Assembly (NCBI GenBank): GCA_031213475.1
Contig: JARUPZ010000027.1
Span: 2,293,001 to 2,357,000, forward strand
Source: Nereocystis luetkeana
Lineage: Eukaryota > Sar > Phaeophyceae > Laminariales > Laminariaceae
Reading direction: 5' to 3'
DNA length: 64,000 bases
The position numbers and the translations under genes were made by a program. Below, piece after piece: positions 35,860 through 55,741 of the stretch. How positions within the stretch are numbered: the stretch's first letter is position 1; each line of letters starts with the position of its first letter. Below the pieces are notes generated by a model. It was not told the origin of the DNA, ran no database searches, and saw only the letters and a program-made list of their open reading frames with translations.

Positions 35860-36134
35860 TGTTATTTGCTGCAAGTATTTTTTACTCAGACAAAATCGCT
35901 ATTTAGATGGACCTTTTTAGGAGGGCAAATCAAATTTGTATACGTATCTTAGGTGGAAAACCAGGGGTTTTCCAGAGAGGCACGAGCGTGGTCTCAGTCT
36001 CCGTCGTGACGAAAGGAATAAAACTGCTCTTCTTCTATCTCTAAGCGAACAACAACGTGAGTACCAACGAGTACCGACTAAATAAGCAGACCTGCCCAGG
36101 GATACAAAGTCTCCCGCTGTCCGTGATCTTAACA
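35860..36134 (+). repeat. 5' LTR of Ty3/Gypsy element 1
   Basis: 275 bp starting TGTTAT and ending ATCTTAACA, same family and length as the LTRs at 51334, 51871 and 55083. The last 200 bp align well (CGTATCTTAGGTGGAAAACC onward); the first 70 bp are diverged. Directly followed by AGTGGCGTCGACGGCAGGAC, the probable primer-binding site. Confidence 0.7.
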
Positions 36135-38280
36135 AGTGGCGTCGACGGCAGGACCAAGCGTACCGGGAACCTGGATCTCTTCCAGGGGAGTGTCGCCTGG
36201 ATGGCCGCCGAACCCAACTCGTGCTTCCCCCTTGAGGCGGCAGCGAGGGTGGTCTCTGCCGCTCGCCGACTCCCACGCGACATGCCCGCAGACGACCTCT
36301 CCGTCCACGACGCTTGGCTCGACATGGCGGACGGCTCCTGGAAGGCCCAGCAACGCCGGGAGCAAACAATGGTTCTGGTCATTAGCCTGCGGCAGGCGCA
36401 CGACTTGTCCCCCTCCACCGTTCTCTGGCCTACTCCGACCGAGTATGGGCGTCAATGCAAGCGCCAGGTCGACTCCGGCGACCAGGGACACCGGCTCCCG
36501 GACGTCGGACAGGGCTCGAGACAGGCCTACGCCCCCTCCAACACCCTCTCGGACGACCGGGCCACCGACCCCCGGGGCACCAACACCCGGGAGTCCCCGA
36601 TAGCTCTGGGGCCCGCGACAGCTCCCACCGCCGTGATGACGACCGGGATCGTCGGCGCCCAAGCATGGGAGGAGCCTTGGCCGGCCATGACGACAGGATC
36701 CGCCGCGGACAGGGTTCAGATCACGGCTGGAGCACATTTCGGCGAAACGGGGCTGGACGTCGGCGAAACCGGGGCCAGGGGAAGGACAGCTCGAGCTACG
36801 GGCGAAATTGGAGCTACCGCCCGCGGGGAGACGCTTCTTAGGCCAACTCTTCGAGGTCCTCCACGGACGGCAGCGGCGAAAGCCCCGTTACCGAGATCAC
36901 CACCGGCTCCAAGAGGCAAGTGGTTCCCTCACTGGCGGAAGTTGCTTCCTCCGCCGCGCTTCTTGGTCGCTTGACCATGTCCGATGACCGCGCCATGCCC
37001 GTGTCGTCTAACCTTGCCCACGCTCGCACGACGGCGATCGGCTCTGCCGCCGCCGCGAAAAAGCACACTGTAGATGCCCAACGGGCGTACAAACACCTGA
37101 GACTGAAAAACATCTCTTGCATTTCTGTTCTACCTTTTTCCTCCTCGATCAACCCTTCTGATGCCGCGCAGCAACTCACGCGTTCGGTTAAGGCCTCCAC
37201 GTCTGATATTCTCATGATGTGCAACGATGGCAGCCATGCAGGCCTTAGTTCTACCGATAGGATCCCCGGTTGGGAGTACCACCTCAAGAAATCCTTCGCG
37301 CGCGCCATCGCACCTGACAAGCCCACGACCGCCTCCCTCACTACCTAGATGGAGTTTTTTGGGCAGGTGTCACGCGCCCTCGCAGCCGGATTGCCGGACC
37401 GGAAGCGTTCACGCTCCTCCTGAGGTTGCTGAGCAACCACTTCGACCGCACCGACACGGGGGTCAGCTACACCAAGTTGCGTGATATTGGCGTACCTAAC
37501 GGGACCCCGTTTTGCGATTTTAGCTGTGCTTTTCGAGGGGTGGTGTCGGCAGCGACGGGGACTGAGAGTGTTTTGGCACCGGGGGTGGAGGTAATTTTGG
37601 AGGTTGTTCGGATGGCAGTGAACGAGCAGTTCCCCAGCTTGATGCCCACGCTGTATACGAAAGTTTTGGCTACGGTGTCGAGGCCGTTTGGTACTTTGGA
37701 CGCCATGTGGTTGGCTTTTGAGACTCTCGCGAATAATAAGACACCTACCATCAACGGCGAAAAATATTTTTCTTTGCCTGCCTCTTCGGCGGGTGTGCGA
37801 TCATCCGCTCCGTCGGGGCTCCGGCCCGCCAGTAATGGTCACGGCCAGGGCAGGACGCTTCCCCAGTTGCCTGTTTGGCAGACGGGGTCGCGCAATAATC
37901 CGCTAGTGATGAACGTCCACAAATCCATCCCTGACTGCCTCGACCCATGGCTTGACACCGCTTCCAACTGCTGGCCCCTAGAAGAACACCACAATGTTGA
38001 AGTTCACGCTGTTAGCATGTCCATCCAGACCGAGGGCCCTCCCCTCCGGAGTGGTCTACTTTTATCGTCCGCCCGCGTGGCCGCCTTCAGCGAAAACCGA
38101 CGCCGCTGTTTGAACTGCCGCGAGGACTCACACTCCCTCAGACAGTGTTGGCACCCCTTTCAAAACCTTAGCGATAATCTAAACCCCGACCTCGGAACGG
38201 CTCGGCGACGATGGCGCGGCGTTCCGTCGTTGGCAAGAACGCATGACCCGACACAGCCGCGAAAATAACTCGCGGCCGAA
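36135..38280 (+). pseudogene. Ty3/Gypsy element 1 gag
   Basis: Read in several frames: 36135-36974, 36920-37348 (AAAAKKHTVDAQRAYKHLRL) and 37426-38268. The third frame has a capsid-like helical segment and a classic zinc knuckle, CLNCREDSHSLRQC (C-x2-C-x4-H-x4-C) at about 38108-38149. A stop at 37346 and at least two frameshifts disable it. Confidence 0.65.
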
Positions 38281-39596
38281 CAAGCACAAACACAAAAAAA
38301 CAGGCGTCGTTCCGGCCATTCGCGGGGGCAGCATCACGGCCAGGGTAAACATAACAGACAAGGTGGCGGCTACAACACACACGCGGAAGGAGGGCACCAA
38401 CAGTCTAACTCCAGCTATCACGGTGGTGGTTCGACCACCCCTGGCTTTTCCGCCCCGGCGTCCGCTTCGGGAGTTTGCTGCGGTGCCTCGCATAATTCGG
38501 ACAGTAACCCCAACGGACGCCAGCCAGACACCTTCCGAGCCGGTAACTGGCAGGCCGATGGCGGTTCGGCTCCTCCTGCCCGCCCGCCGCAAGCATTGCC
38601 GGGAGAAAGTATATTGATTTCACAAGATGCTCGCGTCCCAGGCTCGCTCAGCGCTCAGCACCGACCTGCGCCGCTCCCCCCCCGCGCTTGCTCTGTACTT
38701 CGGACCGAGGCAGCGACTCAGCTCCACCGGTTTTACCGGGGAGCCCCCGGGCGTCTTTTCCGACGTCGGGAGCCCGCGCCTCGAACACCGCTCCCCTCAC
38801 ACTGGGCACGAGAGCAGGTGCGATAACCGCCGCTCTTCCGAACCACGCACCGCGCGGCACCACGCATTTCGCGCCGTCGCGTCGTTCTTTTCAGCGAGGG
38901 TGTCCCTCTCCTTCACCTCCCGGCCATGCGGTGGCGGTCGGTTTGAGGTGCGGGGAAGCAAACACCGAAACCCCGAGATCTCGGTTGAAGCTTGACTCGG
39001 CGTTTCCTCGCAATATCGGTGGCGGCTCCCCCCTTTTTCCTATCAAGGAAGAGTCAAAATTAGCTACCTTGTCCCCCTTCCCCACCAGGTCTACAGGACG
39101 GAAGCCCTCTCCGATGGGCCCTTTGTTTCCCCCCACCGGAGCACCGTTCTCGAAGTCGTCTACAGGGTCTGCAGGCCCTCTTTCGTGTTCGCGCACGCCG
39201 CTCCACGTGCGCCGCGCTCCTTCGGCTCCTGTAGAACAGGAAGAAACTGATACTGCCCGTCGAGCCGGTGGTGACTCCACAGCCTCCGGTCAGATCAACC
39301 GGACAGCATACCCGTTAAATTCGGAAGAATCGCAGCTCTCGTCAAGCAGAACGAGCTCAGAGCCCCCTGCCCCCTTTGATCCAGGACAGAGATCATCCGG
39401 CGCAGTAAGAGAACCTTCTGGCGATTTTTTTCCTGCGGGCAATGGTGACACCGAGCCAGTATACGTGAAACCGGACTCGCCTCGTGCACCAGGGGCTCAG
39501 TGTTCTCAGAGAAGCACACCCCCCCGCCCACACGCCGCAACGGCGGCCACCGACGATTCGACATCTTCGGTCTTTGACCCTACTCTCGAGTATCCA
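38281..39596 (+). pseudogene. Ty3/Gypsy element 1 spacer between gag and NADAR domain
   Basis: One long open frame, 38688-39618, rich in Pro, Ser, Thr and Arg, with no recognised domain, leads straight into the NADAR-like domain. It behaves like a disordered linker of the polyprotein. Confidence 0.5.
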
Positions 39597-40065
39597 ACGG
39601 AGCGGGTGGTACTTTTCTAGCAGAGCCCCCTTCCTATTTTTCGCAGTGGTCCCCCTCGGTTTTTGTCGTTGACGGTGTGCCATATTCGCGCGCGGAGCAG
39701 TATATGATGGCTGGAAAGGCTTGCCTTTTCTGGACCACAACACAGCGGAGCGGATTATGGCCTCGCCAGACCCTAGCGAGCACAAACGCCTCGGTCGGGG
39801 CGTGCATAACTTGGACTGCGCTACCTGGGACCGCGTTCGGGAAGACGCCGTCCTTGCTGGTTATTTTGCCAAATTCACGGAGAACCCGGTCATGACGCAG
39901 CACCTATTGAGCACTGGCAACAAAGTTTTGGCTGAAGCCAGCCCTTTAGACCCCGTGTGGGGCATCGGTCTCCGGGCAGACGACCCCGAGGCTCAAAACC
40001 CCTCTCGGTGGCGTGCGAAAAATTCCTCGGGAAAGTTATTTCCGCCGTTCGCGACACCCTCCGCT
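39597..40065 (+). pseudogene. NADAR (YbiA-like) domain in Ty3/Gypsy element 1
   Basis: NADAR domains act on ADP-ribose or riboflavin-precursor N-glycosidic bonds; members include bacterial YbiA. The fold signature is spread over three frames. The first has YFSQWSPSVFVVDG, then YSRAEQYMMAGKACLF (39685-39732). After a shift at about 39733 the second has DHNTAERIMASPDP, KRLGRGVHN, FAKFTENPVMTQHLLSTG and EASPLDPVWGIGLRADDP (39730-39990). A second shift near 40020 leads to FLGKVISAVRDTLR. The total of about 155 residues is the usual length. The frameshifts mean this copy is dead. It lies between the linker and the protease; element 2 has the same domain at the same place. Confidence 0.8.
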
Positions 40066-40309
40066 CAAGTGACGGGTTGGCACCCCCCGCCTCCTCTCAT
40101 CAATTTTGCACTCCACCCACGACTGACAGAATTCACTAGCTTTCACCGGCGCCGCCCCGCCCTTTGGCCGTGGCCCGCGCTTGCCCAGGTCCTCTCTTGG
40201 AGTTTTCGACCTATTTTTCTGACGCGCCGGCTGATCACAGCCCCGAGGTTTTGGCTGTCGCACCTAGTGTCGACCCTCCCTCGCGCTGCCAGAACACGGC
40301 CCCTGCTTC

Positions 40310-41040
40310 GTCGAGGGCACCAATACCCTCGATGACGCCTCTTCTACTGCCAAAATCGCGATTCACAGCGGAGCTGGCGTTCTTGCGCCTTTTGGTTGCG
40401 TGGTGTTTCTTGACACTGGCTCCCCACAGACTTTCATTCGGCCCGATGTTTTGGATCGCATGCTCGCGGTTGGTGTGGCATCCATCGCATGCGAGCAGAA
40501 ACGCACCCCTCGTTCCTGGGGGGGGTTTGGCGAATCAACCCCTCTGAAGACATCGACGAGTATGCGCCTGAGCGTCCAATTCTTTCGAGAAAATGAGCCT
40601 GTGTGCCCCCTCGCAGTTTGGGCCTGCGTGGTCCCCCCCTCAGTGATGCAGCATGCAGTACTGCTGGGACGTGACAGCTGGACGCGTTTTAATAGCTGCT
40701 CCTACCGCTCTCTGCCACCTCGCCCGTCAGACCAACGCGTTTTTGGTGAGCTGGAGTTACTTCACCACGCCCCGACAGGCCTGCCCGTGTACGCCATCGA
40801 CCCCGCCGCTTCGGGTGGAGGCTTCCATCTCCGCTACGAGGGCGCGGCAGGCGTCACCCTGTCCGACGATCCTCAACTACTTGCGGTTAATTTGGTTCGA
40901 AGCGATGGCTCCCCGGCACTCCCTGGACTCTACTTGGTCGACACGATGTCCCAGTCCGACCTGCCCTCGGTTGAGGAGCACTTCGTCGCTTCCGGGCGAC
41001 AGGTTCTTCCCTCGTTGGAGTGGCGGCCCTCGAGCCAGGA
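40310..41040 (+). pseudogene. Ty3/Gypsy element 1 aspartic protease
   Basis: Retropepsin with the catalytic VVFLDTGSPQTFIRPDVLD (about 40400-40455) and an ILGRD-like LLGRDSWTRF (about 40661-40690) as second half. The frame 40400-41218 is open throughout. A spacer of unknown fold leads into the RT. Confidence 0.75.
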
Positions 41041-43537
41041 GATATCCTCGACGTCGCCCACGCCCCACTGCTCAGCGTCCCGCTCGATGTTTTGCGGCAG
41101 GACAACCGAGCCACCAGCCCTCCTTCAGGACTGTCTGAGGTGTCCCCGGTCTCAGCAGTTACAGCTTCCCCCCTCGCAGCTCCAGCCTCGCCCTCGCCTG
41201 CACTGCTTGAGCGTTTGAGCCCAGAACAGCGCGTTTCGTTCCTGCGCGTCTGGGCACGTTTGCAAGTGCATCTGCGGGAGGTAGATTGTGAACTTCACGG
41301 CACGGACTGGACCCGTGCAGCCGTTGAACAGCTGGGGGATATTCTCTGCGAATTTCCGGACGTTTTCTCGAAGTCCAAATCTGATTTTGGTTCCTGTTCG
41401 TTGACGCCTTTCGTGATTTCGGTCCTGGAAGGAAGCGCTCCTGTCACGTCCAGGCCGCACTGCATCCATCCCATCCTGGCCAAGGAAGTGGAGGACACCT
41501 TGGATCAGTATCTAGCGGCAGGTCTGATCCAGCACTCGACCGCTCCGTACTCGAGCCCGCTGGTGGTCATCCCGCAGAGGTCTGGAGGCGTTCGGAGCAC
41601 CGTAAACTATAAGAAACTCAACAAGATCAGCAACGTCAGCGAGCTACCTATTCCTCGCGTGGATCAAGTCTTCGACTCCCTGGGGGAGGGACGGGTGTTT
41701 TCTCTCTTGGATTTGGTCTCCTCGTTCCACCAGATTACCGCGCACAAGAAAACCGTCCCTCTCACGGCGTTTTGCACTCCTACGGGACTCTACGAGTGGC
41801 TCGTCATGTCCCAAAGCAGCAGTGCTTCGCCCGGCTGGTTCGTCAAAGTAATGAACGAAGTCATCAAAGGTCTGACACAGGTGGCGGCCTACCTAGATGA
41901 TGTGATCGTCTTCGACTCTGATCCGACGGCCCACGTCAAGACGATACGAGCCCTCTTCGAATGCCTGCGCGAACACAACCGCAAGCTCTCCCCCTCGAAG
42001 GCTCGCCTCGGCGCCACGGATGCTAATCTTCTGGGCCACTCCATTTCGTCCACGGGTATACGCAGAAACAGTTTCGGCTTTGATGTATATGCCCATGCCC
42101 AACAACCTCAAGCAGGTCCGTGCGTTGATGGGCGGCGTGGGATATTATCGCAAATTCCTGCCCAACCTGTCTAAAAGGATCCGTCCTCTCACTGCCCTCC
42201 TGCGAAAGAGGGTTAAGTACGTCTTTACGCCGGTCATGGAAGCTATCGTTCGCCATATCCTCGCCGAGCTCACTGCCCCGCCAATTTCGGCCTTCCCGGA
42301 CTGGGACTCTGTAGCCGACGGCTCCCGCCCCTTTCGCGTGTACTGTGACGCCTGCATCGACGGTTTTGGTGCCTCGCTTGAACAAGGACAACTGGACGGC
42401 GCGATACGGCCCATTGCTTATATCAGCCGCGCTACCCTCGATTCCGAGAGGCACTGGATCCCGTTGGACCTGGAAGCTGGCAGCATAGTCCGGGCTATCA
42501 AGTGACTCCGAGGCTACCCATGGGGGACAAAGTTTCGCATATTTTCGGACCACAAAGCACTTGGGAGCATCGGCAAAGTAGGGGATCACAACGCGCGAGT
42601 CCAGCGGTGGCTCGAGTTCCTCACTGCGTTCGACTACACCCTCGAGTACCGCAAGGGCAGCGCCAACGGAAACGCTGATTTTCTCTCCCGTTTGCCAGAA
42701 CCCGCCACAGAACACGACCGCAGTGGGTCTAGCAGCCTCACCCTCGTCGAGGACCGGGGTATCTTCCTCATCCGAGCCTGCGGGCTTCGCACTCGCTCTT
42801 CCCCGACCCCCGGTGTAGGTTTGGGTGGGCTGGTGCCCCGCACCGAAAGTGCCGTCTTTGGTGGGCTGCCTTTCACCGAGCCCGTCACAGAACACGACCG
42901 CAGTGGGTCTAGCAGCCTCACCCTCGTCGAGGACCGGGGTATCTTCCTCATCCGAGCCTGCGGGCTTCGCACTCGCTCTTCCCCGACCCCCGGTGTAGGT
43001 TTGGGTGGGCTGGTGCCCCGCACCGAAAGTGCCGTCTTTGGTGGGCTGCCTTTCACCTCTTCGGATTTTTGCGATTTTCGCGCACACGGGCGACGTATGA
43101 GGATTGACGACGTCTCTGCTCCTCTGGGGAGATTCGCCGCTCGTGTGTCTGCTTCCGTCACCACCGTCGAGCGCCGTCCTGGTCTGCGGTGTTTTTCACC
43201 CGTCGCCGACGCCGCTTTCGCATCGGTTTTTGTCGTACCCCCCGGGGGTGACCAGGGCTCTGCAGAAGCCCCCGCTGCAGCGATGATTGTCGCCCAGCGT
43301 GTTCCTCTCCCGACGAGCACTTTACAGGGAGAAGATTCCGCCACGAGCACTGCTCCGGCCGCGTCTTCCCCTTCAGGCCAGGGCTCTGCAGCCGTCCCCG
43401 CTGCGGCGACGAATGTGGTCGCCCAGCGCTCTCCTCCCCCGACGAGCACTTTACAGGGAGAAGATTACGCCGTGATCGCTTATCCCGCCGCGTCTGCCCC
43501 ATCACTGCCTGGCTACCTGGCGCCTCTGAGAACTTAG
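41020..43537 (+). pseudogene. Ty3/Gypsy element 1 reverse transcriptase and RNase H
   Basis: RT frame 41020-42060: PHCIHPILAKEVEDTLDQYL, SSPLVVIPQRSGG, LPIPRVDQVFDSLG, FSLLDLVSSFHQI, TAFCTPTGLYEWLVM and an intact YLDDVIVF. A frameshift near 42060 leads to the RNase H (42080-42690): YYRKFLPNLSKRIRPLTALL, VYCDACIDGFGASLEQ, AYISRATLDSER and FSDHKALGS, with a TGA at 42503 where Arg is expected. The tail is Pro/Ser-rich, duplicated at 42699-43057, and open to 43537. No integrase follows; the element seems to stop near 43800. Confidence 0.8.
42699..43057 (+). repeat. 180 bp in-frame tandem duplication
   Basis: Two adjacent units with an exact 180 bp period (60 codons) across the RNase H tail of element 1: 42721 and 42901 start identical lines of sequence. 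Only about two differences are seen near the left edge (CCCGCCACAG against CCCGTCACAG), so it is recent and keeps the frame. Confidence 0.9.
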
Positions 43538-45359
43538 CCACCTTCAGGCCGCATCTCTACGCGGGCACGCCGGCGAACAGCCGGCGCGGCTGGCTCCGCG
43601 CCGCCTGCTGTTGACTATGACTTCGGGCCCGGCGGGGCCCCTAGACCATCAGCCCGGCGTGCTATCACCCCGCCGCGAGACCCACGGCCGCGACCTTCCG
43701 CACCAGTCGTTTTGGCCCCGGCTCCTGCCGTTGGTTCCGACGGTACCCATCCCGTCCGAACGCGACCACTTCGAGCCCGTGGGAACCCCTATTTTATGCC
43801 GTGCGAACGACATATTTACACAACAGCACCACCTCTATTTTCGCCTCGACTAGCCAGCTCCGCGCGCGCAAAAACTTTACGTGCTCAAGGTGAACTCTGC
43901 CTCAGCTGTAGCAGCCTAGACTGCAGCATGAAGGCCTGTAGGCAACATTGTTTTGGGCAACGTAGGACAAGTCTGACGATGGACAGCAGCTACCGCAACG
44001 GCAGACGTAATACCAGCGGCAGTGTGGGCGGCCGATCACGACTTCGGCTGCACTACTTTCGACGCTGCACGCTTGTTGCCGACACCGCACCTACAGCGAA
44101 ACGGTATTTCTTCGAGGCCAAGGACCAGCTTCGCCTTTATCAGGATGAGGTTCCTCCTCCTTCTCCTCCAATGGCGCCAGTACGTTCGACGCTGCATGCT
44201 TGCTACCGACACCGCACCGAAAGCGAAACGGTATTTCTTCGGGGCCCAGGACCAGTTTCGCCCTTGTCGGGATGAGCTTATTCCTCCTTCCCCGCCAATA
44301 ACACCACCCCCCCTTCTCACCCATTCCAACAGTAGTAATCACTTGACCAAGTATTGATCCCCTTGTTTAAGTGAATCATCTTGAGGTGTGGGTGGGAGGA
44401 GGTTCAAACGTCGAGCCTTACAAGGACGCTCGCCTCGACGTCTCTTCTCGATGAGCAACGCTCGAACTTGCCACCCATTGCCGAGTGTCCCGCAGGAGTA
44501 ATTGACCTGCTCGACGCCTCGACGATCTTGGCTGCCAGCGGTTCCGGTACCGTACACGGCCCAGCCACCTCTTCAACCGGACCATCGATCGAGCTGGCTT
44601 TCAGCCATTTGGGCCACTCTGCTTGCGCTACGTTCACGAGCGCCGTGGCAGCTTCTGCTGGATCTCAGAATGCAATTAGCACCGGAACCTCCGCTGAGCG
44701 CCAGGTGCTGACAACACCACTACCCCTAGGCCTAGGGGGTAGCCCCGCCCTTTGAAAGGTGGGAGACTCACGACCATCGTTGACCAGGAAATCCGTAGAT
44801 CCACCTGTCCCGCCATCCTTCTCGGTGCCGTGCAATATGATACAACACCGCAGGACCCGGATACCATGAATCGTTTCTCCTAGCGAGTGTGGGCCCCAGC
44901 TTCCCAGTCGAAGACCGACCCAAGCAGGGACCCCCAGGGTATTTCCGGCTATGCTTGAGACCCTCCGGGAAACTCGGCGATGCCGACAATTCCCCCCGCG
45001 AACGCCGGGAGCGCAGCCGGGCCTCTTGCCCCGGCTTCCCTCACGAAGACGCCACATAGCAATGGCTCCCACGGTATCTCCGGCTTCACCCGAGACCCTC
45101 CTACAGGTTCGGCTATACCGACCATTTCACCCGTGAACACAGGGAGCGAAATCGGGCATCTTGACCCGGTTTTCCTCCCGTGAACGCCATTTAAGGGTAT
45201 CTCCGGCTACGCCCGAGACCCTTCTAAAGATTCGGCAAGGCCGACCATTTCCTCCGCGAACACTTGGAGCGCAGCTGGACTTTCGGATCCGGCTCCCCTC
45301 CCAACGACATCATGCGACAGTCTTCGTGACAGCCGCTCATCACCACAGCCGGACCAACC
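43538..45359. other. degenerate Ty3 spacer and tandem repeats
   Basis: 43600-43800 still resembles the spacer before the integrase of element 2 (ACTATGACTTCGGGCC against ACTATGGTTTCGGCCG). 44058-44311 is a tandem pair with a 127 bp period. 44939-45310 holds three units of about 120-135 bp starting GTAT(C/T)TCCGGCT. The ORF 44381-44755 is unrecognised and may be a relic of the gag or linker of element 2. Confidence 0.5.
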
Positions 45360-45605
45360 TGCACACACCCGGAGCCATACGCCTAACCAACTTTACCTGT
45401 TCTGGCAAGGTGACTCCGCCCTTTTACAGTGACACATCTTGGACTTTGTACACGAAGGTACCGTGTTCACCTACGCCGACCAGTTCATCATGGCGCGAAA
45501 TGCCGCACTTTTTGGCGACACTACACGCCACCATCAAATCATGGCCTCGTCCGACCCGGCTCAGCAGAAAGCCCTCGGACGCACCGTGTTCGGTTTCGAC
45601 GACGA
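45360..45605 (+). pseudogene. NADAR-like domain in Ty3/Gypsy element 2, 3'-deleted
   Basis: Same domain as in element 1 but clearly diverged. A TGA at 45430 replaces the Trp expected in Q-W-H. The chain continues DFVHEGTVFTYADQFIMARN, ALFGDTTRHHQIMASSDP and KALGRTVFGFDDDV. The frame then jumps into the middle of the protease, so the second half of NADAR and the catalytic protease Asp have been lost by deletion. That it shares position and motifs with element 1 shows the domain was in the common ancestor. Confidence 0.7.
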
Positions 45606-46020
45606 CGTACGGCTTCGGCACCTCCGCCCCCCTCACTACCTCCGACTCCATCCGCCTCAGCGTACAGTTCCTGAGAGGAACCCCTCCCACAGCCACCCTT
45701 GTCGTGTGGGCGTGTATTATCCCTCCGGGCACTATGCAGCACCCTATCCTTCTTGGGCGGGACAGCTGAATGCGCTGCGAGCAACGCTCGTATACCACGC
45801 TTCCCCACCAGCCAGTCGGACCACTCCTCGGCGAGCTTTCCCTTCTCCACCACGACCCCAACCGAGCCGCCGCGTTCATTCCGGACGACCGTTCCACAAA
45901 CGATGTTTACCACCTCCGATACGCCGGCACCCGAACAATCACATTTTCGACCACTCCAGCCCTCGCCGTGTTCAACCTGGTGCGCCAGTCCGGCGCTCCA
46001 GCGTTCACCGGGAACTAGTT
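45606..46020 (+). pseudogene. Ty3/Gypsy element 2 protease remnant
   Basis: FGTSAPLTTSDSIRLSVQFL, VVWACIIPPGTMQHPILLGR and SLLHHDPNRAAAFI align with element 1 after its DTGS motif. The catalytic half is deleted, so no activity is possible. Confidence 0.7.
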
Positions 46021-46309
46021 GGTCGATATGTTTCCCCGCGATGATCCCCTTTCGGACACGGCGATTTCGTCTTCGATGGGCACCAGACGATACCGCTCTC
46101 CGGCTCCACCGAGCTTGAACCGGGGAACCTCCTTGGGACCTCCTTTGCTCCATTGGTGCAAGTTCCAATTTCCACCCTGTCCTACCCTTCCCTGGAGCCC
46201 CCTCCGCCCCTCCCCGCCCCCGACGTACATGCCCTCCACCACAGCATTCCAGTGGCTAACGAGGGCCCAACCTCAGCGGACCCCCCACACCGCCGAAGAC
46301 GCCGTGCCC

Positions 46310-48271
46310 TGACGTCCTTGCACGCCTTCACGCCGATCAACAAGCGAGTTTCCTACGCCTTTGGGACCGTCTGCCACAACACCTTCGCGACATCTCCTTC
46401 GACCTCCGCGGCCCCGGCTGGTCACCATCGACCATCGACTATTTAGGCGACGTTCTGCGCGAATACCAGGACGTCTTCTCCACATCCAAGACCGACTTCG
46501 GTTCGCATTCCCTGATTCCTATCAAGATTACCGTGCCTCCTGACAGCGCCCCGGTCACCTCCCGCCCAGATACCGGATGAACCCGATCATTGCCAAGAAG
46601 GCCGATGCCATCATCGACCAATATCTCGCGGCCGGGCTCATCCAGCACTCCACCTCGCCGTACTCCGGCCCCATGGTAGCTATTCCTAAGAAAGACGAAG
46701 GCATTCGCATCACGATCAACTACAAGAAGCTCAACGCCACCAGCTCCCTCGAACAACTCCCCATTCCCCGCGTCGGCGAGATCCTGGACTCTTTGGGCAA
46801 AGGATGCATCTTCTCCCTGTTCGATTTCGTCTCCTCCTTCCACCAAATCACCATCGATAAGGACACGATTCCCCTCACGGCTTTCTGCACGCCCGATAAG
46901 CTATTCGAGTAGCTCGTCATGCCGCAGGGCAGCAGCGCCGCCCCCGGTTGTTTCGTCAAGGTCATCAACGAGTTCATCAAAGACCTGGAACGCGTCGCCG
47001 CCTACCTTGACGGCATCATCGTCTACGATACGAACCCCACCGCCCACACCGCCAACATCCGAGCCCTCTTCCAACGCCTTCGTCTCCACTACCTCGAGCT
47101 CTCCGCCGCCAAGGCCAGAATTGGCGCCACCAAGGCTGACTTCCTGGGACATACGATCTCCCCCGCCGGCGTTAGCCCTAACGCCGACAAGGTCGCTGCC
47201 TTGACCAAGATGCCGATACCGCCGAACGTAATTCAAACCCGCGCGCTCATTAGTGGAATTGGTTACCACCGCAAATTCCTACGCCTGCGCCCCATCACGG
47301 CCCTCCTGCTCAAGCAAGGGGCCAGATTCCTTTTCACCCCGACCATGGAAGCGACCGTCCGCGAGATTCTACGCGAGCTCGCCGCCCCTCCGATGCTGGT
47401 TTTCCCGGACTACGACTCTGTCGCCGACAACTCCCGCCCTTTCCACTTGTACTGTGACGCCAGCCGCGACGGCTTCGGCGCCACCCTCAAGCAGGAACAA
47501 CCAGACGGCTCCGTCCGACCCATCCTGTTCATCAGCCGCGCCACCTTGGACTCGGAACGTTCTTGGACCCCCCTCGACCTTGAAGCCGGTAGGATCGTTT
47601 GAGCTATCAAGCGGCTACGCGGCCACCTTTGGTCCACCAAATTCGTCATCTACTCCGACCACAAGGCCCTCGAGAATATCGCCAAAGTAGGCGAGCACAA
47701 CGCCCGCGTGCAGCGCCGGTTGGAGGTCTTCTCCGCCTACACACACACGCTGGAGTACCGGAAAGGTACGGCCAATGGCAACGCCGACTTCCTCTCCCGC
47801 CTCTCCCAGCCAGCCAACGACGCCGACCGCACTGGACCCAACCACCTGACCAGCCCCGATACCGTGGGCATCTCCCTCATCCGTCCCTGCGAACCCTCCA
47901 TGCCGGACATCGGCTTGGGTGGGCTCGTACCAACTCCCTCCCTTCCCATCCCGGTCATCCGACCAATACTCTTCACTGACGACGACTACGGCGACTTCCG
48001 CCGCCTTGGACCCTCCATGGGTTCCTCCGGACCTTCCTCGGTCCCCAAAACCTTCGTCGGGCCTATTTCGACCCACGACAACGCCGTCGGGTCTCTCGCC
48101 AGATCCGCGAACTGCGCCGTGGACGCTGGCGCTCCTCCTGGCTCGGCTTTCAGGCCGCCCTTCATCTCTCCACCGCCCTTCGTCTCTCCACCCCAACCCT
48201 ACGGACCTGATCTCTTCACGGACCCGCTATCGCGCCGCCGCCGCCGCTGGCATTCTCCGCGCCACTGCTGA
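46310..48271 (+). pseudogene. Ty3/Gypsy element 2 reverse transcriptase and RNase H
   Basis: RT: DAIIDQYLAAGLIQHSTSPY, INYKKLNATSS, FSLFDFVSSFHQI, TAFCTP. A TAG at 46910 replaces the conserved Trp before LVMPQGSS. The active site reads YLDGII, so the second catalytic Asp is Gly. RNase H: LYCDASRDGFGATLKQ, FISRATLDSER; TGA at 47600 where Trp is expected; then YSDHKALENIAK. A Pro-rich spacer follows to 48271. About 70% like element 1. Confidence 0.8.
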
Positions 48272-50424
48272 CTATGGTTTCGGCCGCCGAGTAACGGTGG
48301 CTGTACCTCCAAGGTCAGCGCCTTCCCGCCCCCGCGCACCCGCGCCCACGGACAAGGGACCACCGCGTCCTTCCGAACCAACAACCTCCCAGGACGTGCC
48401 GCCCGCGCAACCAGCGCAGCCCGCGCTGCGAGCGACCATGGGCTCAAGATCGCCTCCGGCACTGTCTTCTTCCCTACTTAGGCCCCACGCCTCCGAGCCT
48501 GCCGTCGCGCCCAACAACGGTCTTCCACGACTGGCTTCAGCGCGACCTCTTCCACGATCTCCGGTGTCGCCATCGCTTCTCCTGCCGGGGTTTGCAGACG
48601 ACGACACCCACCTTCTCTCCTGTGTGGAGCACTTCACACACACGGACTGGGCGCGCGACCAAAGCGCCGAGCCCCTCTGCGCCGCTGCCATACACTATCT
48701 TTCCTTGCACTCCCCGGCCCCCCCGCCGCCCGACCTCCTGGGTTCATTCCAGCCGTCCCGGCGCCCGTCGCTTCCAGACGTGCTTGCCCTCGCAGGAAAA
48801 AGCCAACTTCACCGCACCGACGACAACACCGTTCTCCTGGTTCGACAACCACTTAAGCCTCACCGCACGGGAACCCGCTGCACATCCTCCACCACACCAC
48901 CCCCGCGCATCTACGTACCGATGTTGATGCGTCCTTGGGTGCTGCACACCTGCCACGCCGCCGCTTCCTGCCACTTGGGAGTCTCCCGCACGGTCAGCAT
49001 GCTCACGCGCTTTTTCTGGTGGATCGGCAAGGACATCTTCGCCCGCTGGTGGATCCGGCGCTGCCTCAAGTGCCAGGCGCGTAAGACCTCGCGCCAAACC
49101 ATCCGCGGGCCCACCCTTTCCCTGCCCCTACCTAACGGCCCCGGTATCACCGTCAGCGTCGACTACTTCGGCCCGCTGCCCCTTACCCCACGCGGCAACT
49201 CCTGCATCCTCCTCTTCACCGACCGCTTCAGCCGACGTGCAGACATGTACGCAGTGGCAGCAGCCCAGTTCACCGCCGTCGCTACTGCCGATATCCTAAT
49301 CGACCAGTGCATCCCTCTGTGGGGGTGCCCCGTCACCCTCATCTCCGACAACGCGCTGCACTTCACCTCGAAGCTCTTCAACGCCATCTACGAACGCCTT
49401 AGCACCAACAAGATCAACACCAGCTCGTACCACCCCTGCACCAATGGCGGTGCCAAGCGCGTCAACCACACCATGGCCCAAATGCTCTCTACGGGGAGCA
49501 ACGAGCGACAAGACAACTGGGACGAGCTGCTTCCGCACGTCGAATCCGCCTACAACAACTCGGTCAACGCCTCCACTGGGCTCGCGCCTAGCGAAGTCCA
49601 CATAGGCCGCCTTTCGCGTCTGCCCCTTTCGGTCTTGGACTCCCCCAATATTGGCGGCCACCAGAGCCTGGACCGAGACCACCTGGCCTACTGCAACCTC
49701 GCCATCGAGCGCCAGCAACACGCCTACCTCCTCGTCTGCGAAAACCACGCCGTCACCGCTTCACGTCTGGCCCGCCGCAACAAACCCATTATAATCGCCC
49801 TTTGCCTTGCACCCCCGTACACCGTGGGCGGCTGGGCATGGGTCTACAACTCCGCGGCCACTATCCGCCAAGGTGCCGATAAAGACACCAACACCACCGT
49901 GCTCAAGACCAATCTTTCCCTCAACTGGATTGGACCGTTCAAGGTTCTCGCCGTGGGCCCAGCGCCGACCTCCGACATCCCCGACAACCGTCCCCTCTAC
50001 GACAAACTTCTCTTCCTCGACCTACCCTCCGATCAACCTGGACGGGACTCCAAACACCGCGTCTCCGTCGAGCGCTGCAAGCCATGCCGGAGCCCCGACG
50101 ACACCAACGACATGCCCAAGTACCTACCAGCAGACCTCACCAAGTACGTGCTCAACTCCTTCACCAGCAAATCCCCTCCCTTCCACGTCACCTTCGACGA
50201 CGTCTCATCACCCCCGGAACGCGTTCGAAGTCGAGCAGATCACGGGCCACCTACTCGTTCGCGGCCGTGGCGGGGTTATCGCGGTCCTATACGAGACTCA
50301 TTGGGTCGGACTGCTTAGCCCTTCCTGGGAGCGGGAACTCGGCCTACAATACTTCAGACGCCACATCCTCCTCTACTGGTCCGGCACCCCAACAGAGGCA
50401 TTCTACGGTAGAGATTCACCCTAA
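48272..50424 (+). pseudogene. Ty3/Gypsy element 2 integrase with chromodomain-like end
   Basis: The frame is open from 47919 to 50318. It contains an H-H-C-C zinc site (VLHTCHAAASCH, CLKCQARKT), the catalytic core with D (VDYFGPLPL) and D (LISDNALHFTS), and TNGGAKRVNH where the catalytic Glu is expected, so it is Lys here. At about 50215 a frameshift leads to 50220-50424, with FEVEQITGHLLVRGRGGVIA, YETHWVGLLSPSWERE and RRHILLYWSG: a chromodomain-like module as in chromoviruses, which guides insertion to chromatin. Confidence 0.8.
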
Positions 50425-51064: not shown

Positions 51065-51333
51065 GGCCTCTGACTGCCCCGCTTGGCCCCCATGAGTAGC
51101 CTCCTTTAGCATTGAGTAGTTCTTCGGATCGCTTGGGTGCGTTCACTTTCGTTTTGCAACCCTAGCACGCCGCCCCTTTTTTAGGTTTAGTTTTCAGCTG
51201 ACTCAGGCCTAGCCCTACGTGTGTTTTTTTACTGCGATCCTTCTACTTCAAAGTGTATTGCATTGCTCCTTCCATCTGACCACCGCCAGTTCCGCTCGCC
51301 TCTTTAAATAAAGCCGCCGAACTGTCGCGGTAT
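51065..51333. other. non-coding, start of tandem array
   Basis: Probably the 3' untranslated part of element 2. 51265-51333 belongs to the 95 bp tandem units that go on after the LTR insertion at 52147. Confidence 0.5.
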
Positions 51334-52146
51334 TGTTAAGATCACGGTGAGCGGAACACTTTGTATCCCTGGACAGGTCTGCCTATTAAGCCGGCACTCG
51401 TTGGTACTCACATTGATGTTCGCTTAGAGATAGAAGAGCCACTTTATTCCTTTCGTGCACGACGGAGACTGGGGCCACGCTCGTGCCTCTCTGGAAAACC
51501 CCTGGTTCTCCACCTAAGATACGCCTTCCAAGTACTACAAATACGATCCCAGTGCCAGAACCCAGGTAATTACCGGGCTTTCAACCTCATACAAAGCAGT
51601 ATCATAACACTAGCCCACTATGATGAGCTGTATATGCAGAATTATGGGAAATTCATGGAAACCCCGATTCCACAACTAGAACATGAGTCGAAGATGCGGC
51701 TCCTCAAAACCCACTCCCACACCTCTGAACGGCAAGGCAACGAAGCCGGCAAAGTACGTAAAAAATAATGAAAGGAAGCGTAGCCTCAAGGGGCAGGAAG
51801 AAATCGTCAACGAGTGAAAAAAAACTTGTACCGGCAAAAAGGCAAAAAGTCCTAAGCCGACGACGCCACTTGTTAAGATCACGGTGAGCGGAACACTTTG
51901 TATCCCTGGACAGGTTTGCCTATTAAGCCGGCACTCGTTGGTACTCACGTTGATGTTCGCTTAGAGATAGAAGAGCCACTTTATTCCTTTCGTGCACGAC
52001 GGAGACTGGGACCACGCTCGTGCCTCTCTGGAAAACCCCTGGTTCTCCACCTAAGATACGCCTTCCAAGTACAACAAATACGATCCCAGTGCCAGAACCC
52101 AGGTAATTACCGGGCTTTCAACCTCATACAAAGCAGTATCATAACA
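51334..52146 (-). mobile_element. non-autonomous miniature LTR retrotransposon (TRIM-like), element A
   Basis: LTRs at 51334-51609 and 51871-52146 (276 bp each) differ at about four positions, so insertion was recent. Both have TGTT...AACA ends. A 4 bp GTAT flanks both sides (51330-51333 and 52147-52150), a clean target duplication. On the minus strand the right LTR is followed by AGTGGCGTCGTCGGC, the same primer-binding site as Ty3 element 1, but the 261 bp inside have no domain. The LTRs belong to the family of element 1, which probably supplied the proteins. Confidence 0.9.
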
Positions 52147-52780
52147 GTATTGTACGTTCGGACGTATTGGTTTGTTTATTTGATCTACTTTTTGGTGTTG
52201 GGATATTTCTTCACAGAATAGTGTTGTACTTTCGGAAGTGTTGGTCTGCGGTTTTCAATCTATCACTCCCGGTTTCTTTCGCTTTCTCTAACGAAGGCAG
52301 CCGAACTGTCGCAGCATTCTCTTTTCGGGTGTGTTGGTCTGCTATTTCCAATCAATCACTGCCGGTTCCGTTCGCTTTCTTTAGCGAAGGCAGCCGAACA
52401 GTCGTGGTATTGTCTTTTCGGGTGTGCGGGTCTGCTGTTTTCATGCTACCGCTACCGGTTCCGTTCGCTTTTTATCAGCGACAGTGACCGAAATGTCGTG
52501 GTATTGTACCTTCGGTTATTCGCTGGGTCTCCGGTTATTCACTCTTCCACTGCCAGTTCCGCTTGCCTCTTCCATCAAAGGCCGCCGAACTTTCTTGGTA
52601 TCGTCCCTTTGGGATTGTTTGCGATTGGGGGATTTTTCCTATTTTCTGCTACGCATACCACTAAAAAATCGTAGTATTCTAAAACGGACGTTTTCGCGTT
52701 CTTTCGTCAATTTTCTGCCACCGTTTCCACCGGCCTGCTCTTCGTGAAGGCCGCCGAACCGTGGTGCTACAGTATTTCTA
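52147..52780. repeat. about 95 bp tandem repeat array
   Basis: Five to six diverged units, each with TTTCGGGTGTGTTGGTCTGC, CCGGTTCCGTTCGCTTTCT and GGC(A/C)GCCGAAC, also before the LTR element at 51265. Likely derived from the LTR or 3' part of a Ty3 element. Confidence 0.7.
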
Positions 52781-54748: not shown

Positions 54749-55082
54749 TGTTACAAAACCTGGGCTGGCTAATCGAGCAATCTTTACCCCTGTAGCTCAC
54801 TATTAATAGGTATCACCTTCACATTTGGCGTCGTCGGCAGGACACAAACTCAAATCTCACTTCGAACGTTTCTTTTATAGAAACGCTTGCGCGTGCGGTC
54901 CTTATAAACATATCTGCCTGGTTCCGCAGGTATCAAAAACGAAGCGGGGGGGTCAGAGTACGGCCGTCTACGGTATACCGACGCCCCAAATATCCCGCCG
55001 TTTAGAGGGGGGGAAAGTGTTGAAAAGATTACCCTGGGCTGGGTAATCGGTCGATCTTTTACCCCCATAGTTCCGTAGGTAA
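54749..55082 (+). mobile_element. miniature LTR element (TRIM), element B, 3' LTR interrupted
   Basis: Left LTR 54749-54823 (TGTTACAAAACC to TTCACA), primer-binding-like TTTGGCGTCGTCGGCAGGAC at 54824, a 195 bp interior, a polypurine tract AGAGGGGGGGAAAG, and a right LTR from 55018 (TGTTGAAAAG) broken by the next LTR at 55083. The LTRs are about 70% alike. The left LTR has an extra TATTAA inside a CTATTAATAG palindrome. Confidence 0.7.
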
Positions 55083-55354
55083 TGTTATGATACTGCTTTA
55101 TATGAGGTTGAAAGCCCGGTAATTACCTGGGTTCAGGTACTGGGATCGCATTGGTAGTGCTTGGAAGGCGTATCTTAGGTGGAAAACCAGGGGTTTTCCA
55201 GAGAAGCACGAGCTTGGTCTCAGTCTCCGTCGTTCATGAAAGGAATAAAGCTGCTCTTCTTATATCTCTAACAGACGTCAGTAACAACGAGTACCGACTT
55301 AATAGGCAGACCTGTCCAGGGATACAAAGTGTCCCGCATGCTCTGATCTTAACA
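55083..55354 (+). repeat. LTR of the Ty3 element 1 family (element C)
   Basis: 272 bp, TGTTATGATACTGC to ATCTTAACA. It is followed by AGTGGCGTCGTCGGCAGGAC and an interior that starts with a T-arm-like hairpin (GTGAG-TTCGAAT-CTCAC, 55389-55405) and an ATG. No matching 3' LTR is found nearby, so the element is truncated or broken by the one at 55742. Confidence 0.75.
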
Positions 55355-55741
55355 AGTGGCGTCGTCGGCAGGACATGGGTCGTTGGTCGTGAGTTCGAAT
55401 CTCACGTCCACCATGAAATCGCTTTCTAAAGAGAGAAAACGAAAGAAAACAAAGAAAAACAAGAACAAAGAAACAAAACAAAAGCGGATTAGAAAATGTA
55501 TATTATTATTATGCTTGCCTTCCGACAATATAGCGTAGATGACATCCCAATATAATCCGAATATCCTTCCGTAAATCAGCAGTATACGCAGAAGAAAAAA
55601 ATGTCGTGCCTCCCCGCAGGGGATGTGGCAAGCACTTATAAAGAAGGAGCTGGTGAAAAAAAAGAAAGAAAAAAACACCACTACCTATAAACAGAGTAGG
55701 ACTAAGAACCGAGCGAAAATAAGAGGCAACCGAAGCACAAA
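55355..55741 (+). mobile_element. interior of LTR element C, no coding domain
   Basis: Primer-binding site, T-arm-like hairpin and ATGAAATCGC, then A-rich sequence. The short ORFs do not resemble gag or pol. Confidence 0.5.

What the first reader, a model, noticed from the sequence alone, without database searches (positions are those of the whole stretch)
39597..45605. NADAR (YbiA-like) domain built into a Ty3/Gypsy retrotransposon family
Both Ty3/Gypsy elements carry a NADAR-like domain at the same place, between the gag-side linker and the protease. Element 1 has all landmarks (WSPSVFVVDG, AEQYMMAGKA, LGRGVHN, EASPLDPVWGIGL and a terminal LGKVISAVRDTL). Element 2 keeps the N-terminal half (FTYADQFIMARNAALFGD, IMASSDP, LGRTVFGFDDD). 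The two are quite diverged, so the domain was inherited by the family and not captured once by a single copy. NADAR proteins handle ADP-ribose or riboflavin-precursor glycosidic bonds, and some reverse ADP-ribosylation. A retroelement could use this to counter a host ADP-ribosylation defence or to act on nucleic-acid adducts. I know of no standard Ty3 with this domain; novelty is my inference.
Basis: partly seen in the sequence, partly recalled or inferred. Interest (0 to 1): 0.87.

Follow-up and report, generated by a model that had tools for sequence, protein, structure and literature searches.

The report
NADAR-carrying Ty3/Gypsy retrotransposon family
A jumping-gene family in this genome carries a built-in domain of a kind that removes ADP-ribose tags, kept in several diverged branches of the family; the same combination was reported in a brown alga in 2025, so the finding is real but not new in kind.

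Summary
Confirmed. Pfam NADAR matches both elements: element 1 in two pieces (E 1.4e-6 and 1.3e-27), element 2 its N-terminal half (1.1e-7, below Pfam's cut-off). Both window copies are dead: element 1's domain is split over three frames; element 2 lost the second NADAR half and the front of the protease in one deletion of about 0.7 kb.

Elsewhere in this 465-Mb genome the family is large: 778 candidates, 150 scored, 150 of 150 over the cut-off, 48 of them in open frames of at least 2000 aa. Of 30 copies found by the protease alone, 29 have NADAR upstream. Five lineages, 47-59% identical, keep the catalytic residues, with dN/dS 0.20-0.39 where computable. One copy has 488-bp LTRs differing at two positions.

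The architecture is already in print: PMC12477816 (September 2025) reports a YbiA-family NADAR at the Pol N-terminus in one Ectocarpus Gypsy lineage. So: new member of a known kind; added here are constraint, family-wide presence and recent insertion. Function is untested; I favour an ADP-ribosyl hydrolase acting on the element's nucleic acids. The host was not identified.

The parts
36137..36154 (+). Likely primer binding site of element 1 (the name is an inference)
   Evidence: Same 18 bases directly follow the 5' LTR of a complete own-genome copy
38943..39617 (+). Element 1, linker before NADAR (frame 3), ended by a stop at 39618
   Evidence: tblastn with P0035, 65% over 248 aa; sequence
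39617..39730 (+). Element 1, NADAR N-terminal piece (frame 2) with the Glu and Lys of AEQYMMAGKA
   Evidence: PF08719 E 1.4e-6; tblastn
39727..40035 (+). Element 1, NADAR main piece (frame 1)
   Evidence: PF08719 E 1.3e-27; tblastn with P0012, 75% over 103 aa
40023..40073 (+). Element 1, NADAR C-terminal end (frame 3), LGKVISAVRDTL
   Evidence: tblastn; sequence
40274..40600 (+). Element 1, aspartic protease (frame 2), DTGSPQTF
   Evidence: tblastn with P0012 (40274-40588, 78% over 105 aa) and P0112 (40283-40600); no Pfam match for this piece
41569..42042 (+). Element 1, reverse transcriptase
   Evidence: PF00078 E 1.3e-20 in window:40975-42171
42314..42502 (+). Element 1, RNase H (start)
   Evidence: PF17919 E 1.5e-12, PF17917 E 1.1e-11 in window:41906-42502
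45376..45621 (+). Element 2, N-terminal half of NADAR; catalytic Glu and Lys replaced
   Evidence: PF08719 E 1.1e-7, below cut-off; tblastn with P0051
45610..45625 (+). Element 2, join of the deletion of about 0.7 kb relative to L051
   Evidence: blastn of L051 to the window; P0121 has the same junction
45611..46045 (+). Element 2, C-terminal part of the protease region
   Evidence: 47% over 146 aa to element 1
46682..47158 (+). Element 2, reverse transcriptase in two pieces
   Evidence: PF00078 E 7.6e-6 and 9.2e-12
47333..47593 (+). Element 2, RNase H
   Evidence: PF17919 E 8.7e-16
48915..49424 (+). Element 2, integrase zinc-binding and core domains
   Evidence: PF17921 E 6.3e-11; PF00665 E 5.4e-5, below cut-off

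Best explanation
A Ty3/Gypsy LTR retrotransposon family whose polyprotein has the order linker - NADAR - aspartic protease - reverse transcriptase - RNase H - integrase. The NADAR is of the YbiA type and in intact copies keeps the residues that bind and cleave ADP-ribose. Proposed working (inference): NADAR is made as part of the polyprotein, enters the virus-like particle, may be cut free by the protease next to it, and removes ADP-ribose, most likely from guanine bases of the element's RNA or cDNA, so that such adducts do not block reverse transcription or integration. Shown: domain, order, family-wide inheritance, residue conservation, constraint, recent insertion. Inferred: enzymatic activity, packaging, substrate, benefit.
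For: Pfam, PDB sequence and fold matches are all NADAR. 29 of 30 own-genome copies found by protease alone have NADAR upstream, and 10 of 10 public proteins that reach at least 100 aa upstream of the protease. Among 51 distinct own-genome domains Glu43 is kept in 50, Lys50 in 51, Trp89 in 51, Trp133 in 51, Asp130 in 50, the YbiA-type Glu in 47. dN/dS 0.20-0.39 for the four lineage pairs where it can be computed. Guanine-ADP-ribose hydrolysis is reported for oomycete, bacterial and phage NADARs (passages of PMC11543638 and PMC11125620). One copy with near-identical LTRs and 48 of 150 matches in frames of at least 2000 aa show that the NADAR form has spread recently.
Against: No activity, packaging or substrate was shown. 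The scored copies are the best 150 of 778 candidates, and my 70 are a chosen part of those, so conservation is overestimated. In the public set the catalytic columns are only a little above the median column (0.855), and the protease is more conserved than NADAR in 7 of 10 proteins compared. The ligand residue Asp86 is not kept and Tyr84 is Phe. A form with half a NADAR exists in more than one sequence, so the domain can be lost, at least in dead or helped copies.
Confidence: 0.45

Rival explanations
1. NADAR serves RNA processing or repair: it cleans ADP-ribose derivatives made during RNA repair or on RNA ends of the transposition intermediate, with no host defence involved.
For: Suggested for these elements in PMC12477816 and for viral NADARs in PMC9503650 (passages).
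Against: No RNA ligase or phosphotransferase domain appeared in the element pieces scanned with Pfam; the scan did not cover every part of the element.
Confidence: 0.2
2. NADAR is kept for binding or structure (RNA binding, particle assembly, spacing of the protease) and catalysis is not the point.
For: It lies next to the protease in the polyprotein; a scaffold role would also give constraint.
Against: Glu43 and Lys50, reported as needed for activity in E. coli C7 NADAR, are kept in 50 and 51 of 51, and 10 of 13 listed ligand or catalytic positions are invariant over five lineages against 48 of 148 columns (p 8e-4).
Confidence: 0.2
3. A passenger: a NADAR captured once and carried along neutrally.
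For: Both window copies are decayed, and a half-domain form exists in more than one sequence.
Against: Five lineages at 47-59% identity with complete NADAR, dN/dS 0.20-0.39 between lineages where computable, and 48 of 150 matches in open frames of at least 2000 aa.
Confidence: 0.05

Closest known systems
NADAR-carrying Gypsy lineage of Ectocarpus, e.g. Gypsy-12_Ec32 (PMC12477816)
   Different: A 465-Mb assembly here against about 200 Mb there; putative C-terminal chromodomain reported there, none found here by Pfam; the sequences themselves were not compared
Tx1 LINE ORF1 proteins of Crassostrea gigas with NADAR (PMC12477816)
   Same: NADAR inside a retrotransposon protein
   Different: Non-LTR element, other protein; not compared here
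NADAR of Phytophthora nicotianae, PDB 8bau, and E. coli YbiA, PDB 2b3w
   Same: Best two PDB matches by sequence and by fold; catalytic Glu and Lys shared
   Different: Not parts of a retroelement polyprotein; Tyr84 is Phe and Asp86 not kept in the elements
Phage YbiA-like proteins (e.g. Xanthomonas phage Mallos)
   Same: 50-52% identical over 97-98% of the domain in the eight rows listed of 680 records
   Different: Phage genes, not part of a retroelement
NADARs embedded in polyproteins of animal positive-strand RNA viruses (PMC9503650, passages)
   Same: Domain built into a replication polyprotein; proposed to counter host ADP-ribosylation
   Different: RNA viruses; no sequence comparison made here

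Membership tests
NADAR (PF08719), YbiA type | Profile match over the curated cut-off | tested here: met
   Element 1 main piece 97.4 bits against 35.1; 150 of 150 scored own-genome matches. Element 2 alone: 32.7 bits, not met
NADAR (PF08719), YbiA type | Catalytic Glu and Lys (Glu43, Lys50 of the oomycete enzyme) | tested here: met
   50 and 51 of 51 own-genome domains; present in element 1, replaced in element 2
NADAR (PF08719), YbiA type | YbiA-type conserved Glu in the last strand | tested here: met
   47 of 51; its equivalence to the residue in the papers is my alignment-based inference
NADAR (PF08719), YbiA type | YbiA fold | tested here: met
   8bau E 1.7e-5, 2b3w E 1.7e-3, nothing else below E 1, from a model confident only in the N-terminal half of the domain
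NADAR (PF08719), YbiA type | ADP-ribosyl hydrolase activity | not testable with these tools
   Needs protein
DarT1-linked NADAR antitoxin (BC4488 type) | Catalytic Asp in place of the Glu, and a neighbouring DarT toxin | tested here: not met
   Glu present in 47 of 51; domain lies inside a retroelement polyprotein. The neighbouring DNA was not searched for a transferase
Ty3/Gypsy LTR retrotransposon | Protease - RT - RNase H - integrase order | tested here: met
   L019/L075 and L028/L077 pieces; element 2 RT - RNase H - integrase. In element 1 no stretch like element 2's integrase was found from 36000-44400
Ty3/Gypsy LTR retrotransposon | Two LTRs, TG...CA ends, short target duplication | tested here: met
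   C5:4552495-4562632, 488 bp, 2 mismatches, CCTT on both flanks. Not shown for the two window elements
Ty3/Gypsy LTR retrotransposon | RT phylogeny inside Ty3/Gypsy | not tested
   No RT tree was built
[quoted passage not shown]
Ectocarpus NADAR-Gypsy lineage | C-terminal chromodomain after integrase | tested here: inconclusive
   No Pfam match up to E 10 in L077:2817-4244 or window:49425-50315; the paper calls the domain putative

The most novel reading that the evidence does not exclude
The retrotransposon carries its own anti-ADP-ribosylation enzyme: NADAR, packed with reverse transcriptase, strips ADP-ribose that host transferases put on guanines of the element's RNA or cDNA, so that nucleic-acid ADP-ribosylation is a genome defence in this lineage.
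Probability: 0.25. Interest if true: 0.82.

Novelty: new member of a known kind. Interest (0 to 1): 0.45.

Why it matters
NADARs are known as antitoxins and as phage and virus proteins; PMC11125620 calls their role across eukaryotes unclear (passage). A retroelement family that has kept an apparently intact NADAR in at least five diverged lineages and has inserted recently is a natural case in which the substrate could be found. If that substrate is the element's own nucleic acid, it would point to nucleic-acid ADP-ribosylation as a eukaryotic defence against transposons.

Tried and rejected
Chance match: rejected. Single-copy capture: rejected. Neutral passenger: judged unlikely. Programmed frameshift near the NADAR C-terminus: considered because many public proteins change frame there, rejected because in 19 of 30 own-genome loci NADAR and the protease motif share one frame. 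DarT1-type antitoxin: not met. Origin: phage YbiA-like proteins are 50-52% identical in the rows listed and three IMG/VR contigs 43-45%; this does not decide between donors, and no tree was built.

Led nowhere: viral-contig scan with the single protein and genome-contig scan with alignment A1 found no relative. AlphaFold of P0112 was poor (mean pLDDT 51.9); that of P0035 was confident only in part (mean 53.0).

Literature: searches returned PMC12477816 alone; others (20 of 104 listed; 5 of 5; 10 of 80 listed) list it too, and no other listed title is about NADAR in a transposon; judged from listings only. 'nadar' as a word start also matches unrelated words. One search (retrotransposon with ADP-ribosylation terms, 8 of 30 listed) gave nothing of use. 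Read: PMC12477816 section 5 part 1 and passages; passages only of PMC11543638, PMC11125620 and PMC9503650. The library holds open-licence papers only, no bioRxiv preprints.

Not run: RT phylogeny; likelihood codon models; host identification (a search for PF19114, which I recall as a family expanded in brown algae, did not complete).
Full report
What was claimed.

The domain is there. Pfam NADAR (PF08719) matches element 1 in two overlapping pieces in different frames (39578-39892, E 1.4e-6; 39673-40332, E 1.3e-27, 97.4 bits against a cut-off of 35.1) and element 2 over profile positions 32-83 (45433-46041, E 1.1e-7, 32.7 bits, below the cut-off). A PDB sequence search with element 1's larger piece gives two chains up to E 1, both NADARs: 8bau (E 2e-9) and YbiA 2b3w (E 0.0092). 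A structure model of a public relative, P0035, is confident only in the N-terminal half of the domain (mean pLDDT 53.0); its two best PDB matches are again 8bau (E 1.7e-5) and 2b3w (E 1.7e-3), the next being at E 3.1.

Both window copies are dead. In element 1 the linker (frame 3) ends at a stop at 39618, NADAR runs through frames 2, 1 and 3, and the protease is in frame 2. Element 2 keeps the first half of NADAR (45376-45621) joined directly to the C-terminal part of the protease region. The full-length relative L051 aligns up to its base 860 with 45625 and resumes at its base 1570 with 45610: a loss of about 0.7 kb with a short overlap at the join. Element 2 also has Asp and Asn where L051 has the catalytic Glu and Lys. 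A public protein, P0121, shows the same junction (88% identity over 69% of the region searched), so the truncated form is found in more than one sequence. The two window elements are related but diverged: RT 57% over 231 aa, RNase H region 64% over 148 aa.

The window lies in an unnamed assembly of 465,085,209 bases and 1987 contigs. I did not identify the host; 'brown alga' is plausible from the literature below but untested.

It is a family trait. A search of the own genome with the NADAR profile gave 778 candidates; 150 were scored and all 150 exceed the curated cut-off. Of these 150, 48 lie in open frames of at least 2000 aa and 15 of at least 2370 aa (lengths copied; one of the 48, at 2369 aa, is listed with a stop inside the match). 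To avoid looking only where NADAR is, I searched with the protease piece alone: 858 candidates, 150 scored. The 30 best were given as loci with about 1500 bases upstream, and 29 of 30 have NADAR there. Of these 30, one is the window copy itself, three are exact duplicates of others and more may be duplicates on the other strand, one of the 29 keeps only 23 aa of the domain, and L082 is the miss. In the public protein set the same protease-only search (120 of 192 hits listed) gave 105 of 120 with the protease stretch used; 10 of these extend at least 100 aa upstream, and 10 of 10 carry NADAR.

Order of domains. In 19 of 30 loci (L004-L033) the DTG protease motif lies in the same open frame downstream of NADAR, and in 25 of 30 in some frame. 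Two long-frame copies were described in pieces. Pfam gives NADAR in L019 (E 3.8e-48) and after it a weak Asp_protease_2 match (E 0.061, below cut-off), then RT, RNase H, integrase H2C2 and core in L075 and in L077, the core matches being below the cut-off. The pieces scanned N-terminal to the main frame had no Pfam match, so gag is not identified by profile. No chromodomain was found. One copy, C5:4552495-4562632, has two 488-bp LTRs that differ at 2 positions (99.59%), TG...CA ends and CCTT on both flanks, and after its 5' LTR stand the same 18 bases as in the window at 36137-36154. So a member of the family has inserted recently. LTRs were looked for in two copies and shown in one; for the other the stretches fetched showed no repeat.

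It is under constraint. I took 70 own-genome loci: the 30 and 40 that I chose from the other 120 listed. All 70 have a near-full domain; 14 with stops and 5 identical repeats were dropped, leaving 51. They fall into five lineages, A and B by best match and C, D and E split off by me by eye: A (21, element 1 type), B (23), C (L051, element 2 type), D (5), E (L063). Representatives are 47-59% identical. Residues described for the oomycete and E. coli C7 enzymes in PMC11543638 (passages) are kept: Glu43 in 50 of 51, Lys50 51, Lys75 46, Arg79 49, Trp89 51, Arg93 50, Asp130 50, Trp133 51, and the YbiA-type Glu (my position 125, an inference) 47 of 51. Over the five representatives 10 of 13 listed positions are invariant against 48 of 148 columns overall (p 8e-4); Arg79, Val81 and Asp86 vary, and Tyr84 is Phe in all five. 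A first count that left out Val81, Tyr84 and Asp86 gave 9 of 10 (p 1.7e-4). Nei-Gojobori dN/dS of medians is 0.29 (A-C), 0.39 (B-C), 0.20 (B-E) and 0.25 (C-E); the six other between-lineage pairs are saturated, B-C (dS 0.92) is the most reliable, and C and E rest on one copy each. Within lineages it is 0.43 (A), 0.36 (B) and 0.62 (D), as expected if dead copies add neutral changes.

Against this reading: in the public proteins (120 of 211 hits listed) the catalytic Lys is kept in 79 of 85 and Glu in 9 of 11 that reach it, but the median column is also conserved to 0.855, so that set alone shows no special constraint. NADAR and protease diverge to a similar degree between public lineages, with the protease more conserved in 7 of 10 proteins compared. 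The scored own-genome copies are the best of 778 candidates, and mine a chosen part of those.

What it is like. The eight phage rows listed (of 680 records) are 50-52% identical over 97-98% of the domain and are annotated YbiA-like or GTP cyclohydrolase II, or not at all: as close as the retroelement lineages are to each other. The domain is of the YbiA type and not the DarT1-linked BC4488 type. PMC11543638 and PMC11125620 report guanine-ADP-ribose hydrolysis by oomycete, bacterial and phage NADARs (passages). PMC9503650 describes NADARs inside polyproteins of eukaryotic RNA viruses and proposes that they act on host ADP-ribosylation or in RNA repair (passages).

What is already known. [quoted passage not shown] No other paper on NADAR in a transposon was seen in the listings, of which 6 and 88 show only part of their hits. 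This report adds another genome, copy numbers, a test of family-wide presence that does not use NADAR, site and codon constraint, and evidence of recent insertion. Whether these elements are the very lineage of Gypsy-12_Ec32 was not tested.

Mechanism. Shown: domain, place, inheritance, conserved active site, constraint, recent insertion. Inferred: that the enzyme works, that it is packaged, and what it acts on. I favour removal of ADP-ribose from guanine in the element's RNA or cDNA (0.45 for an active hydrolase serving the element's nucleic acids; 0.25 for the narrower counter-defence reading).

Noticed in passing
L001:6277-8839 (IMGVR_UViG_3300010885_031430): A viral contig has a row of three genes: nicotinamide phosphoribosyltransferase, NADAR and a Macro-domain protein, an NAD and ADP-ribose cassette.
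   Followed up: partly
window 42691-43050, 43269-43504, 44046-44299, 44893-45271: Several short tandem duplications (about 107 to 257 bases) lie between the end of element 1's RNase H and the start of element 2.
   Followed up: no
window 35943-36154, 51333-51612, 51870-52149, 55080-55374: LTR-like repeats of one family in both orientations; those at 36154 and 55374 both end in a primer-site-like sequence, so further related insertions may lie at the edges of this stretch.
   Followed up: no
P0121 (public protein) and window 45376-45688: The truncated NADAR-protease junction of element 2 recurs in a public protein: a deleted form that was copied, or one insertion seen in two strains or species.
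   Followed up: partly
phage records OP752703.1, KU204984.2, OP380269.1: Phage NADARs annotated as GTP cyclohydrolase II, which is probably a misnomer.
   Followed up: no
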